From Thermococcus celer Vu 13 = JCM 8558 (GTDB lineage Archaea; Methanobacteriota_B; Thermococci; Thermococcales; Thermococcaceae), in contig NZ_CP014854.1 in NCBI RefSeq assembly GCF_002214365.1, forward strand, positions 310,001-374,000: 64,000 nucleotides of DNA. Direction: 5' to 3'. Shown in pieces: positions 4,161 to 44,958 of this stretch. Each line of letters opens with the position of its first letter. Positions within the stretch are counted from its first letter, which is position 1. The position numbers and the translations under genes were made by a program. The notes under the pieces were generated by a model that was given only the letters and a program-made list of their open reading frames with translations, did no database searches and was not told where the DNA came from.

Positions 4161-5242
4161 AAATTAACTACACCATGTTTGGAACTGGCTTAACTGGTGG
4201 AGTTAGGGTAATACTGGAAATAGCAAATCACCTAGTTAAGAGAGGACATGAGGTAACAATAACATCTCTCGGAAGAGAAAACGACCATAAGTGGTTTCCA
4301 CTAAAAGCCAGGACAATCTATGTTAAAAGGCCAAAGTACATTCTTGGGGCAAGATACGTGATTAGAAAATACCTAAAAAACCATTGGTTTGAGGCCTACC
4401 CCCAAGCTGAAATAAGGAAGCTTGCAGAAGCTACTCCAGATGATATTGACATAAATGTGGCTACCTTTTGCTTCACTGCATATTCAGTATTCGCAAGTGA
4501 AAAAGGTGTCCCCTTTTATCACATGCAACACTATGAACCGCTGTTTTTTGATGATGCTTTTTTAAAGAAATTGGCGGAAGGAACATATCACCTTCCTCTA
4601 AACAAGATTTCAAATTCCATATGGCTTCATAACATTATGAAGGAAAAATATGGGGTCGAGACACCTATAGTTAATCCAGCTATTGATCACAATGTCTTTT
4701 ATCCTCGAGAGATTGAAAAAGAAAGTAACAAGTTAAGAGTTATTGCCTTTGGAAAACAAACACGGTGGAAAGGGTTTCCAGAGTTATTGAAGGCAATGGA
4801 GGTTGTAATGAAACAGAGAAATGATGTGGAATTTGTAGTGTATGGTGCCAAAAAGCCAACTTATGAATCAAGAGTTCCATATAAGTTCGTTCAAAGACCA
4901 TCAGACGAAGAACTGGCGCAACTTTATTCCTCTGCTGATGTGGTTGTAACTGCTTCTTGGTATGAGAGTTTCCCACTCCCACCACTTGAGGCAATGGCAT
5001 GTGGGGCACCCGTTGTAACTACGAGGTATGGAACGGAAGATTATGCATTCCATGGGAAGAATGCATTAGTGGTTCCGCCTAAAGATCCCAAAGCATTAGC
5101 TGAAGCAATATTGAGATTGTTAAATGATGAAGACCTAAGAGAACAATTCCGGAGGGAAGGGCCAAAGACAGCGAAGCGATTTACATGGGATAATACAGTA
5201 GACAAAGTAGAGAAGTTATTCAAAGGTGCTCTTAAAGGGTGA
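4157..5242 (+). CDS. GT4-family glycosyltransferase
   Basis: A 361-residue GT-B glycosyltransferase that probably adds a sugar to the lipid-linked glycan exported by the upstream flippase. The N-terminal domain begins MKINYTMFGTGLTGGVRVI, with the Gly-rich loop and the RGHEVTI strand. The C-terminal donor-binding domain has RVIAFGKQTRWKGFPEL and the retaining-transferase E-x7-E motif in WYESFPLPPLEAMACG. Acceptor and sugar cannot be predicted. It overlaps the flippase by four bases and is followed after six bases by the flavoprotein gene, so the three are probably cotranscribed. Confidence 0.85.
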   Translation: MKINYTMFGTGLTGGVRVILEIANHLVKRGHEVTITSLGRENDHKWFPLKARTIYVKRPKYILGARYVIRKYLKNHWFEAYPQAEIRKLAEATPDDIDINVATFCFTAYSVFASEKGVPFYHMQHYEPLFFDDAFLKKLAEGTYHLPLNKISNSIWLHNIMKEKYGVETPIVNPAIDHNVFYPREIEKESNKLRVIAFGKQTRWKGFPELLKAMEVVMKQRNDVEFVVYGAKKPTYESRVPYKFVQRPSDEELAQLYSSADVVVTASWYESFPLPPLEAMACGAPVVTTRYGTEDYAFHGKNALVVPPKDPKALAEAILRLLNDEDLREQFRREGPKTAKRFTWDNTVDKVEKLFKGALKG

Positions 5243-5248
5243 TGAAAA

Positions 5249-6547
5249 ATGAAAATCGGAATCCTCGGCGGTGGCTTAGCGGGGCTCTCTCTGGGATATT
5301 TCTTAAACCAGAGGGGATACGACTTTTTAATTTTGGAGAAAAACCCTGAGACTGGGGGGCTCCTTAAGTCTGTTCAAATTGAAGGGTTCACGTTTGACGT
5401 TGGCGGCTCCCACATAATATTCTCGAGGGATAGAGAGATTTTGAATTTCATGGCGTCCCTCCTTGGTGATAACGTGGTCAAAAACCGCAGGAATACAAAA
5501 ATCCTCTACAAAGGTCGTTATGTGAAGTACCCCTTTGAAAATGGACTGGCTGACCTGCCAAAGCAGGACAACTTCGAGTGCCTGTATTACTTCGTCCAAA
5601 ATCTAATCGCAAAGGAGAAGGGGCTTTTGAAACCTCCAAGAAACATGAAAGACTGGTTTTATTACACCTTCGGCAAGGGGATTGCCGAGAAGTATTTGAT
5701 CCCCTACAACGAGAAAATATGGAAGTATCCGCTTGATAAGATGAGCACAGTCTGGGTTGAGAGAATCCCGAATCCACCGATTGAGGACGTGATAAAATCC
5801 TCCCTGGGAATCTCAACCGAGGGGTACACCCACCAGCTTTACTTTTACTACCCAAAATTCGGTGGAATCCAGAGCTTAGCCAGAGCCTTGGAAAGACCAA
5901 TAAAAGACAAAATCGTCACAAATTTTGAAGCTAAGAGTATCAAAAAGGAAAATGGGAAATGGATAATATCGAATGGCAAGTGTGAGTTTGAGTTTGACAG
6001 AGTGATCTCCACCATCCCAATACCAGAATTGATTAAGTCCTTAGATGATGTTCCTGAAGAAATTATTGAAGCCGTGAATAATCTAAACTTTAATTCCCTT
6101 ATTACTGTCGGGATTGGCGTTGATAGATCAAAGCTCAACGATTTCTCCTGGCTTTATATTCCGGATAAGGACATCTTACCGCACAGGGTTAGTTTTCCAT
6201 CGAATTATTCCCCCCACGTTGCTCCATCGGGTAAGTCCTCAATCTTGGCTGAAGTTACATATAGAGAAGGGGATGAGATAAGTAGAATAAAGGATGATGA
6301 GATCGCCGGGATAACAGTGGAGAATCTCCATAAGCTGGGAATTATGGACAAAAAGGACGTTGTACTAACAACGGTCCACAGATTTAAATACGCTTACGTT
6401 ATATACGATCTTGATTACAGGAATAATCTCGAAGCCATCTTTAAATATTTAAATGAAATTGGAATTGAGAGTATTGGAAGATTCGGGAGCTGGGAATATG
6501 CAAACATGGACGCGGTAATTAAAATGGTGAAGGATTATGTTGGATGA
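5249..6547 (+). CDS. FAD-dependent amine-oxidoreductase-fold protein, UDP-galactopyranose-mutase-like
   Basis: A 432-residue flavoprotein. The N-terminal dinucleotide-binding site is GILGGGLAGLSLGYFL followed by LILEKNPETGGLL, and the GSHIIFSRDREIL segment resembles UDP-galactopyranose mutases and related protoporphyrinogen-oxidase-like enzymes in capsule clusters. In this setting a nucleotide-sugar isomerase or a desaturase/oxidase is likely; sequence alone does not separate these. The GGGTGATG ribosome site precedes ATG 5249. It closes the flippase-glycosyltransferase operon. True Glf activity is only an inference. Confidence 0.7.
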   Translation: MKIGILGGGLAGLSLGYFLNQRGYDFLILEKNPETGGLLKSVQIEGFTFDVGGSHIIFSRDREILNFMASLLGDNVVKNRRNTKILYKGRYVKYPFENGLADLPKQDNFECLYYFVQNLIAKEKGLLKPPRNMKDWFYYTFGKGIAEKYLIPYNEKIWKYPLDKMSTVWVERIPNPPIEDVIKSSLGISTEGYTHQLYFYYPKFGGIQSLARALERPIKDKIVTNFEAKSIKKENGKWIISNGKCEFEFDRVISTIPIPELIKSLDDVPEEIIEAVNNLNFNSLITVGIGVDRSKLNDFSWLYIPDKDILPHRVSFPSNYSPHVAPSGKSSILAEVTYREGDEISRIKDDEIAGITVENLHKLGIMDKKDVVLTTVHRFKYAYVIYDLDYRNNLEAIFKYLNEIGIESIGRFGSWEYANMDAVIKMVKDYVG

Positions 6548-42670: not shown

Positions 42671-42818
42671 GCCCCTGTTTTTACTCTAATTTTCTTTCTG
42701 GACCAATCAACAGCACGGCCAGCGCAACGATGACGATCCGGCCGTGGGGGCTCCATCATCAACTTCGCCCAACGGCCCCCCAGCAGGGAGTCCAGGAACG
42801 TTGCGGTGCCGTTTCTCC

Positions 42819-44108
42819 CTACCGCTTCATTTTGTGTGAGAGTGTATCACTTTGCGTCGGCGGTAAGGAGTTCCACCTCAACCATCTGGATTTCTCAATC
42901 CAGATGGCTTCACTGGTGGCGGTCGAGGCTAACGGCACGAGCCTCCCATCCACGAAAAACCCCCCAGAGCTTAGAGCAGAGCTCCCATCACCCTGAAGGG
43001 CCCTCAAATACAAATTCCAGACAGCAAGAACATCACGATGCCAAACCTCACCACCAGCAGAGCAAACCCCAAACCGACCATCCTCGTACTCCACAACAGC
43101 ATTGTGAACAGGACAAATTCTTGAAGTGTTCTTCGGATTCACTCTTATCACAGGAACACCATACTCTCTTGCCTTCTCCTCAATAGCCTTCTGTACCCCC
43201 AAGAATGCTGACTGATAAATCCTGTGCCGAAGCTGTTTATCACCAACCCTCTCCAACATCCTCCTTGGAACGTTCTTCGGAAGCTTCTCCAAGATTATTC
43301 CAGCATTTCTCTTTTTTGCCTCTTTGACAATTATTTTCGCAAGCTTGAGGCGAACGTCCCTCTTTTTATCCTTCTCACGAAGCTTTCTCAAAATCTTCCT
43401 CTTCTTTTCATTTCTTGAGCCAAGCTTTTTATCCCACTTCTTCTGAACCCTTTTCCTCCTGTAATAATACCCGAGAGTGATTTTCTTCTGTCCAGTCTCA
43501 AAAATCACTGGCGTGAAATCAACGAGTGCGGTAACGTTGTCCTCATTCACATCAACAGAAATCCACGATTTTGCCTTATACTGCTCAACATCCTTGAAAA
43601 AGGTTAGGTAAATAATCAGCCTCCTCTCTTTTTTGTCAGGCTTTATTCTCGCTTGAGAGGCCAGTTTCCAGCCCGAATTCACTGTCTTCCAATAATGCTT
43701 GTGCGCCTCAAGACCAACCTCAATCCAGCCCTTGTGCGTGGTTATCTTTATGACAGTTAGTCCAGCACGCCACAGGTGGTCATCAAGCCATATTGAAACA
43801 TTCCTGACTTCTGGATACACCTTCTCGGCGAGGCCTTTCCTCTTCCTCTTCAGAAAGCTTTTTGCCCTCAAGGCTGAATCTTGGCAGACCGTGTATGCAT
43901 AGTGAGAGGGAAGTTGTGGATAAAACTCTCTCAAAAATCTGTATTTTTCAGCCTTCAGCTTTACAAAAGAGGTTGTTTCATTCTGAACTGCAAACAGGAC
44001 AGTCTGAAGGAGCATTTCTCGATACATTCCCTCAAGCTCGACGAATATTTTGGAAACCTTTTTCGGAAGCCTTTCAGACTTCAAAACAACGGTCTTCGTA
44101 ACCCTCAT
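42819..44108 (-). CDS. tnpB: TnpB RNA-guided nuclease of an IS607-type element
   Basis: A 429-residue protein. The RuvC-like catalytic residues are kept: D186 in ISVDVNEDNVT, E274 in IILEKLPKN and D359 in WHRDVLAVWN. A zinc-ribbon-like part lies between the last two (C332-P-V-H, C349), with His replacing the second Cys and no obvious fourth Cys. TnpB proteins cut DNA guided by an RNA that overlaps the 3' end of their own gene. The gene is full length with no stops, and GCTGA precedes ATG 44108. Nuclease activity is inferred from intact residues. Confidence 0.9.
   Translation of the reverse strand: MRVTKTVVLKSERLPKKVSKIFVELEGMYREMLLQTVLFAVQNETTSFVKLKAEKYRFLREFYPQLPSHYAYTVCQDSALRAKSFLKRKRKGLAEKVYPEVRNVSIWLDDHLWRAGLTVIKITTHKGWIEVGLEAHKHYWKTVNSGWKLASQARIKPDKKERRLIIYLTFFKDVEQYKAKSWISVDVNEDNVTALVDFTPVIFETGQKKITLGYYYRRKRVQKKWDKKLGSRNEKKRKILRKLREKDKKRDVRLKLAKIIVKEAKKRNAGIILEKLPKNVPRRMLERVGDKQLRHRIYQSAFLGVQKAIEEKAREYGVPVIRVNPKNTSRICPVHNAVVEYEDGRFGVCSAGGEVWHRDVLAVWNLYLRALQGDGSSALSSGGFFVDGRLVPLASTATSEAIWIEKSRWLRWNSLPPTQSDTLSHKMKR
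42882..42907 (-). repeat. Perfect hairpin in the 3' end of tnpB, candidate guide-RNA stem
   Basis: CCATCTGGATT (42882-42892) and AATCCAGATGG (42897-42907) are perfect 11-base arms around the loop TCTC. The repeat lies in the last 30 codons of tnpB. In IS200/IS605 and IS607 elements the guide RNA (omega RNA) covers this end and runs beyond it, so the hairpin may be one of its stems, although it also codes for an in-frame W-I-E-K-S-R-W segment. Confidence 0.6.
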
Positions 44109-44114
44109 TCAGCT

Positions 44115-44226
44115 TCAACCTCTTTCAATAACTGTCTTTATTTTACCAGAATAAATCCATCTTGATTGTTATGAAACTAACACCAAGAACTTCAGCGACT
44201 TGTCTTGGAGTGAGCATTCTCTCCAT
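44115..44226 (-). pseudogene. Remnant of IS607 serine recombinase TnpA (HTH part only)
   Basis: From ATG 44226 the frame gives MERMLTPRQVAEVLGVSFIT then IK, the MerR-like DNA-binding start of IS607 TnpA. Two bases appear to be missing after the IK codons; the next frame continues as WIYSGKIKTVIERG and stops at TGA 44115-44117, a few bases before tnpB. The whole serine-recombinase catalytic domain, about 150 or more residues, is gone, with the extreme C-terminus apparently kept. The gene is not functional. Confidence 0.8.
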
Positions 44227-44367
44227 GGCACACACCTACACACAACGATACACAATGAAACTTGTAAAGTTTTCTGCCCCCTTACGTCCCGTGAATTGAC
44301 CGTTTTGTGCCGAACGCGGTCTGGAACGACCCACTCAAAAACCGTAAAAATAAGGGAGTTGGTGGTT

Positions 44368-44958
44368 CTAAGGTCTCACCGCAACGTCCCATTTCTCCCC
44401 GTCCTCAACAACCCCTATCGCCAGAACCGGATGGGCGAAGTCGAGTTTCAGGACGTTCTCTGCGAGCTCCCCGGCCTTTGAGAAGCTTAGCTCCAGCCCC
44501 TCGACGCCGTCCACGTTGTACGTTGCCGTGAAAAAGGCCTTCCCTTCCACCAGCTTAACGGACCTGACCCAGAGCTCATCCCGCCCAACGAAGCCGAGCC
44601 AGCCCTTCTCCTTTCCGCGCTCGACCACCGCGGCTATCCTCGGCGTGTCGTACTCATCCCGCTCGTAGTCGAGGGCGTCGAGCGTACGTATCAAAGCCTT
44701 CCTCGGGCTCTCCTCCTCGAGGGCCTGCGCCACGAAGGCCGTCTGGAGGCCGTTGCTGACCACCGCGTACCTTTCGAGCAGTTTCACAACGGGGTAGCTC
44801 ACGTATGGGTTGTCCGTCTCGGTCTGGTTGGCGATGTAAACCTCGTTTCCTCTGATTACGGCCTTCCTATTGGGAAAAGAGCGGGAGTTCAGGCGGTAGA
44901 AGGCGAAGGGCCTGCCACCACTGAGGCCAATCCCGAGCATCCTCCCGACGTACCTCAA
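44368..44958 (-). CDS. purO: Archaeal IMP cyclohydrolase
   Basis: A 196-residue enzyme of the archaeal PurO family, closing FAICAR to IMP, the last step of purine synthesis. The N-terminal YVGRMLGIGLSGGRPFAFYR and SRSFPNRKAV motifs and the family length fit. It is the last gene of thiC-purC-purP-purO with a four-base overlap with purP. PurO replaces the PurH cyclohydrolase of bacteria. Downstream, 44227-44367 shows nothing apart from possible insertion-element end sequence. Confidence 0.92.
   Translation of the reverse strand: MRYVGRMLGIGLSGGRPFAFYRLNSRSFPNRKAVIRGNEVYIANQTETDNPYVSYPVVKLLERYAVVSNGLQTAFVAQALEEESPRKALIRTLDALDYERDEYDTPRIAAVVERGKEKGWLGFVGRDELWVRSVKLVEGKAFFTATYNVDGVEGLELSFSKAGELAENVLKLDFAHPVLAIGVVEDGEKWDVAVRP

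What the first reader, a model, noticed from the sequence alone, without database searches (positions are those of the whole stretch)
42819..44226. IS607-type element with an intact TnpB but a collapsed TnpA
TnpA is reduced to its HTH start plus a short tail by an internal deletion and a two-base loss, while the TnpB frame and its RuvC residues D186, E274, D359 are intact. TnpB nuclease alone can persist by cutting alleles without the element, and domesticated TnpBs exist. Retention next to a lost recombinase suggests recent loss, mobilisation in trans, or a kept nuclease role.
Basis: partly seen in the sequence, partly recalled or inferred. Interest (0 to 1): 0.62.

Follow-up and report, generated by a model that had tools for sequence, protein, structure and literature searches.

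The report
Recombinase-dead IS607 element, copied after breakage
A small archaeal jumping gene has lost its own "jumping" enzyme but kept its RNA-guided DNA cutter, its guide RNA and both ends, and a second identical broken copy elsewhere in the same genome shows it still spread after breaking; this is a clear example of a known kind of dependent mobile element, with no sign that the cell has put the cutter to its own use.

Summary
The element is window 42809-44281 (minus strand, 1473 bp) in a Thermococcaceae genome: a 27-codon tnpA remnant plus an intact 429-aa tnpB with D186/E274/D359. Compared with intact 1981-bp relatives in other species, tnpA lost 2 bp near codon 23 and 506 bp at a 4-5 bp microhomology. 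A second copy, identical over exactly these 1473 bp and carrying the same two lesions and the same TATA substitution, sits 1.15 Mb away in unrelated flanks. The element was therefore most likely transposed after tnpA died. Both IS607-type ends are intact: GG borders, and TGTGTA motifs phased at about 10 bp on the left and inverted on the right. So is a roughly 190-nt omega-RNA whose base pairs covary. The genome's only other IS607 recombinase belongs to an element without those end motifs, so the cognate TnpA has probably been lost since. TnpB on this branch shows omega of about 0.5-0.9, against 0.11-0.16 in the family; omega = 1 is not rejected, so no kept host role is indicated. This is a non-autonomous IS607 derivative, a new member of a known kind. 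In passing: Thermococcaceae carry many TnpA-less tnpB units headed by a ribbon-helix-helix gene.

The parts
42809..44281 (-). whole element, 1473 bp, IS607-type deletion derivative; identical copy at G000:C1:1504590-1506062
   Evidence: exact identity with the second copy stops at these two bases, with unrelated flanks; same ends in six relatives
42819..44108 (-). tnpB, 429 aa, RuvC triad D186/E274/D359
44143..44226 (-). tnpA remnant, 27 codons (HTH start, then frameshift and stop)
44160..44163 (-). site of the 2-bp loss in tnpA (AGAGA to AGA, position ambiguous within the repeat)
   Evidence: alignment to six intact relatives
44131..44134 (-). junction of the 506-bp deletion, microhomology CAGT
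44118..44123 (-). AGAGGT, Shine-Dalgarno-like sequence retained upstream of the tnpB start
   Evidence: sequence; function inferred
44262..44268 (-). TATA-like box, TTTATAA in all six relatives, TTTACAA here (both copies)
   Evidence: alignment; effect inferred
44227..44254 (-). left-end repeats of TGTGTA, spaced about 10 bp (putative TnpA binding motifs)
   Evidence: architecture as in PMC6188088
42832..42857 (-). right-end inverted copies of the motif (TACACT, CACACA)
   Evidence: inverted-repeat scan I6
42809..42999 (-). omega-RNA scaffold overlapping the 3' end of tnpB; seven helices, covariation
   Evidence: synonymous divergence drops from about 0.6 to about 0.2 here
42789..42808 (-). 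predicted guide of this copy (flank beyond the right end): CACCGCAACGTTCCTGGACT
   Evidence: position beyond the element end; guide role inferred from known IS607 TnpBs (PMC10711439)

Best explanation
This is a non-autonomous IS607 element. An intact tnpA-tnpB element, recently shared with another Thermococcaceae genus, lost tnpA through a 2-bp slip and a 506-bp microhomology deletion. The tnpB gene with its own ribosome-binding site, the omega-RNA at the 3' end and both recombination ends were left in place (shown). The broken form was then transposed to a second chromosomal site, giving two identical copies in unrelated flanks (shown; that it was transposition is the simplest reading). As IS607 needs its serine recombinase, this required TnpA supplied in trans by an intact sibling, since no cognate tnpA is left in the genome (absence shown; trans supply inferred). 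TnpB, if expressed, would use each copy's flanking sequence as guide and cut the corresponding empty site, favouring retention of the two existing copies (inferred). The tnpB sequence now appears to drift under relaxed constraint, and the promoter TATA box is damaged, so decay is the expected fate.
For: Two copies identical over exactly 1473 bp with both lesions and different flanks. Six relatives define the same ends and the intact 212-codon tnpA frame (158 codons in G007). GG at both borders and no target duplication, as expected for IS607 (PMC10711439, PMC6188088). Phased TGTGTA motifs kept at both ends. omega-RNA structure with 17 compensatory cells against 8.2 +/- 2.4 in shuffles, and 95% of cells paired against under 47% when slid. 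Only one serine recombinase and no Y1 TnpA in the genome; that recombinase has a divergent HTH (24 of 52 aligned positions identical) and its own element lacks the TGTGTA motifs. Branch omega for G000 0.88 against 0.13 (p = 0.007, all codons); 0.51 (p = 0.065) and 0.46 (p = 0.13) when the recombinant stretch is left out; omega = 1 never rejected.
Against: Identity of two copies could also come from gene conversion between two older copies. No empty site could be shown, because related species do not keep the gene order across either insertion. The relaxed-selection result rests on about ten substitutions; a stricter count gives Fisher p = 0.087. Activity of TnpB and the omega-RNA is untested.
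Confidence: 0.72

Rival explanations
1. Gene conversion: both sites once held full elements, and the broken copy overwrote the other (or both came from one event), so no transposition happened after tnpA loss.
For: Thermococcales recombine efficiently (general knowledge); tnpB of G076 is visibly mosaic, so recombination between these elements does occur.
Against: Identity runs without one mismatch to the very last base at both ends. No intact copy or remnant exists in this genome. A tract that covers exactly the element is possible only if the two copies were already nearly identical.
Confidence: 0.17
2. Domesticated TnpB: the nuclease with its guide is kept for a host function such as defence or regulation.
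For: Open frame, intact RuvC triad and structured omega-RNA are all kept.
Against: Branch omega not below 1, and most unique changes are amino-acid replacing. TATA box substituted. The element moved recently and the two copies carry different guides. No species in the genus carries a close relative.
Confidence: 0.06
3. The resident IS607 element at G000:C1:88-90 kb supplies the TnpA that moves this derivative.
For: It is the only serine recombinase in the genome and its catalytic part is similar (88 of 151 aligned positions identical). The extreme borders are alike (GGGGC......AACGG).
Against: Its HTH differs (24 of 52 aligned positions identical), and its own ends have no TGTGTA motif while all seven elements of the present type do.
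Confidence: 0.12
4. Sequencing or assembly artefact in tnpA.
For: A 2-bp loss alone could be an error.
Against: Both copies, at unique flanks, carry the same 2-bp loss and the same 506-bp deletion; the 2-bp loss is not in a homopolymer.
Confidence: 0.02

Closest known systems
Intact relatives of the same IS607 element in Thermococcaceae (G076, G089, G083 = MAG QMUE01000241, G008, G004)
   Same: Same ends, same tnpB (81-90% aa identity), same omega-RNA, same insertion at GG
   Different: They carry a 212-codon tnpA frame and TATA TTTATAA; here tnpA has two lesions and the TATA box has one substitution
IS607 loci with pseudogene TnpA and intact TnpB described by Cell Res 2024 (PMC11061315)
   Same: TnpA broken by frameshift, TnpB and its guide RNA kept; that paper reports that 30% of the TnpAs at two-gene IS607 loci are broken
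   Different: Those are bacterial and RAGATH-18-linked; here the amplification after breakage is visible, and Rfam finds no RAGATH-18
Copy on Pyrococcus abyssi plasmid pGE2 (NZ_MN477947)
   Same: tnpB intact, tnpA damaged
   Different: Lost the left end and the first 22 tnpA codons, so it should be immobile
Solved TnpB and Cas12f structures (9nzp, 7wju, 9nzr)
   Same: Profile of this TnpB matches their RuvC and zinc-ribbon region
   Different: No single-sequence match; low identity; two zinc-ribbon ligands are changed in this clade

Membership tests
IS607 family | Serine recombinase TnpA with N-terminal HTH | tested here: not met
   Only the HTH start is left in this copy. Intact relatives have HTH_17 plus the Resolvase domain, so this copy is a derivative of the family and not a full member.
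IS607 family | Insertion between GG dinucleotides, no terminal inverted repeat, no target duplication | tested here: met
   GG at both borders in all copies, no repeated flank
IS607 family | Helically phased short motifs near the ends for TnpA filament binding | tested here: met
   TGTGTA at 28, 38/40 and 48 on the left, inverted about 29 and 37 bp from the right end; binding itself not tested
Non-autonomous IS607 derivative moved in trans | Ends intact, transposase dead, more than one copy with the same lesion at different sites | tested here: met
Non-autonomous IS607 derivative moved in trans | Cognate TnpA available in the same cell | tested here: not met
   The only recombinase belongs to an element with different end motifs; it may have been present earlier
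TnpB (RNA-guided nuclease) | RuvC D-E-D triad | tested here: met
   D186, E274, D359 invariant in ten homologues
TnpB (RNA-guided nuclease) | Four-ligand zinc ribbon | tested here: inconclusive
   CPxH...CSxGG in this clade against CPxC...CxCG in the other TnpBs
TnpB (RNA-guided nuclease) | omega-RNA from the right end with guide beyond the border | tested here: met
   Conserved covarying structure up to the border; transcription not testable
Domesticated TnpB | Immobile, conserved position, purifying selection | tested here: not met
   Two copies in different flanks, no close relative elsewhere in the genus, omega not below 1

The most novel reading that the evidence does not exclude
TnpB plus omega-RNA without any TnpA is itself a persisting selfish unit in this lineage: it borrows recombinases for rare moves and uses guided cutting to hold each site. 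The same genome's four RHH-tnpB units would be a second, organised form of this strategy, with a small regulator in place of the recombinase.
Probability: 0.15. Interest if true: 0.6.

Novelty: new member of a known kind. Interest (0 to 1): 0.36.

Why it matters
The two identical copies give a natural test of what a TnpB element does once its transposase is gone: it still spread at least once, apparently after tnpA was dead. It also gives a small hyperthermophilic TnpB with a well-defined guide-RNA scaffold and an intact sister element for side-by-side tests of trans-mobilisation. Otherwise it is an ordinary case.

Tried and rejected
Empty-site comparison: the flanking genes are present in relatives, but not next to each other, for either copy. 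Phage and viral collections: no relative; the plasmid collection gave only pGE2. Rfam: one sub-threshold chance hit. AlphaFold with a six-sequence alignment gave a poor model (pLDDT 57), so no fold search was made. Retention bias, tnpA lost before tnpB: three independent cases of tnpA broken with tnpB open (this one, pGE2, G007) against one of tnpB broken with the visible part of tnpA open (G010 C117); too few to claim selection. The 390-bp remnants in G010 and G011 were considered as amplified miniature elements, but their flanks are the same, so they are one old insertion.

Full report
What is there. The window lies at 310001-374000 of a 1.87-Mb single-contig genome whose relatives searched as its family are Thermococcaceae (Pyrococcus abyssi in the plasmid hit, Thermococci MAGs). 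tnpB is an uninterrupted 429-codon frame on the minus strand at 42819-44108. It matches the Cas12f1-like TNB domain, and a profile of its family matches solved TnpB and Cas12f chains. D186, E274 and D359 are invariant among ten homologues.

The lesions. Six relatives in other genera carry the same element at 1962-1990 bp. Five have a full 212-codon tnpA frame; G007 has a frame of 158 codons and is probably frameshifted. Against the nearest, G076, the window copy lacks 508 bp: 2 bp in an AGAGA run, and 506 bp between two CAGT sites (GCAGT on both sides in G076). The remnant is 27 codons. The deletion left the last bases of tnpA, which hold AGAGGT about 9 bases before the tnpB start, so tnpB can in principle be translated alone (inference).

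The second copy. A DNA search of the genome found one more copy, at 1504590-1506062, 100% identical over 1473 bp and to no base beyond. Its flanks are unrelated, and both lesions and the TATA substitution are present. No intact copy and no further fragment exist in the genome. The simplest history is that tnpA broke first and the broken element then moved. Gene conversion between two older copies is the main rival; it needs the two to have been almost identical already.

Can it still be moved? IS607 elements recombine at GG and are bound by TnpA at short motifs spaced by one helical turn near the ends (PMC6188088, PMC10711439). Here both borders have GG, the left end has TGTGTA-like motifs at 28, 38/40 and 48, and the right end has inverted copies at about 29 and 37 bp from the border; these are shared by the intact relatives. 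The only serine recombinase in the genome is at 89451-89846, and there is no Y1 transposase. It is the TnpA of another IS607 element whose TnpB is 39% identical, whose HTH matches at 24 of 52 aligned positions, and whose ends lack the motif. It is therefore an unlikely partner; the helper was probably an intact sibling since lost. The element also travels between genera: outside a recombinant stretch tnpB is 95.7% identical to G076, while chromosomal flanks in the same genus are about 80% identical at best.

The guide RNA. The last 190 nt of the element are conserved at synonymous sites (pairwise synonymous difference falls from about 0.6 to about 0.2) and fold into a seven-helix consensus that reaches the border. 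There are 17 cells with compensatory changes against 8.2 +/- 2.4 in shuffles, and 95% of cells are paired against at most 47% when the partners are slid. Helix 4 swaps G-C for C-G in five sequences although it lies in coding sequence. The scaffold is kept in remnants that have lost most of tnpB. This copy keeps the structure.

Selection. A codon model on seven sequences gives omega 0.13 for the family and 0.88 for the branch leading to this genome (p = 0.007 against one ratio; omega = 1 fits equally well, p = 0.92). Without the recombinant stretch of G076 the branch value is 0.51 (p = 0.065) or 0.46 (p = 0.13). Unique changes on this branch are 2 synonymous and 7 replacing, against 115 and 97 for the other tips (Fisher p = 0.087). 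This suggests relaxed constraint but is not proof. In all six relatives the left end reads CTTTATAA; here it reads CTTTACAA, which should weaken the promoter (inference).

Verdict. A non-autonomous IS607 derivative that appears to have been copied after its recombinase died and is probably now decaying. Broken TnpA beside intact TnpB is common: 30% of TnpAs in two-gene IS607 loci in one survey (PMC11061315). The finding is real and well resolved, but of a known kind.

Side observation. Four of the genome's other five tnpB copies have no TnpA either. Each is headed by a 58-codon ribbon-helix-helix-like frame placed directly upstream of tnpB (matches about 4 bases apart in the translated search), and the same pair occurs at more than twenty loci in other Thermococcaceae. 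The family assignment is weak: its Pfam matches to ribbon-helix-helix models are below the curated cut-offs. On a tnpB tree, RHH-type and TnpA-type units are mixed, with weak support in places. A search for papers naming both TnpB and ribbon-helix-helix found none that describes this pair. This deserves its own study.

Noticed in passing
G000:C1:254932-256264, 571269-572600, 1434965-1436300, 1744737-1746069 (L010, L012, L014, L011): Four TnpA-less tnpB units, each headed by an identical 58-codon ribbon-helix-helix-like frame (Pfam matches below cut-off); the same pair is at more than 20 further loci across Thermococcaceae, and RHH-type and TnpA-type units are mixed on a tnpB tree.
   Followed up: partly
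G023:C1:741948, G001:C19:269482, G015:C2:67797, G076:C5:848391, G078:C1:1735738: More distant RHH-like frames (about 44-47% identity) also lie upstream of a second TnpB lineage of about 440 aa.
   Followed up: no
L012 around 4170-5601 and L011 around 4640-6070: Two of the RHH-tnpB units appear to interrupt genes: an iron-dependent alcohol dehydrogenase-like frame and a dihydropteroate synthase-like frame (gene names from reading the translations, not tested).
   Followed up: no
G076:C3:137819-139118 (L078), tnpB codons about 150-290: tnpB of the closest intact relative is a mosaic: about 75% identity to the window copy in this stretch against 95.7% elsewhere.
   Followed up: partly
L158 (plasmid pGE2) 2470-4329: A plasmid copy of the element in Pyrococcus abyssi has an open tnpB but has lost the left end and the first 22 tnpA codons.
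   Followed up: partly
window 42819-44108, residues 332-352: Zinc ribbon of this TnpB clade reads CPxH...CSxGG instead of CPxC...CxCG, while the RuvC triad is kept.
   Followed up: no
window 44377-44399: The first 11 bases of this copy's predicted guide recur in the 3' end of the next gene, 96 bp from the element, without the expected GG before it.
   Followed up: no
L086:1180-1573 and L088:956-1348: A 390-bp remnant of the same element, with its omega-RNA end kept, sits in the same flanks in two species: one old shared insertion.
   Followed up: partly
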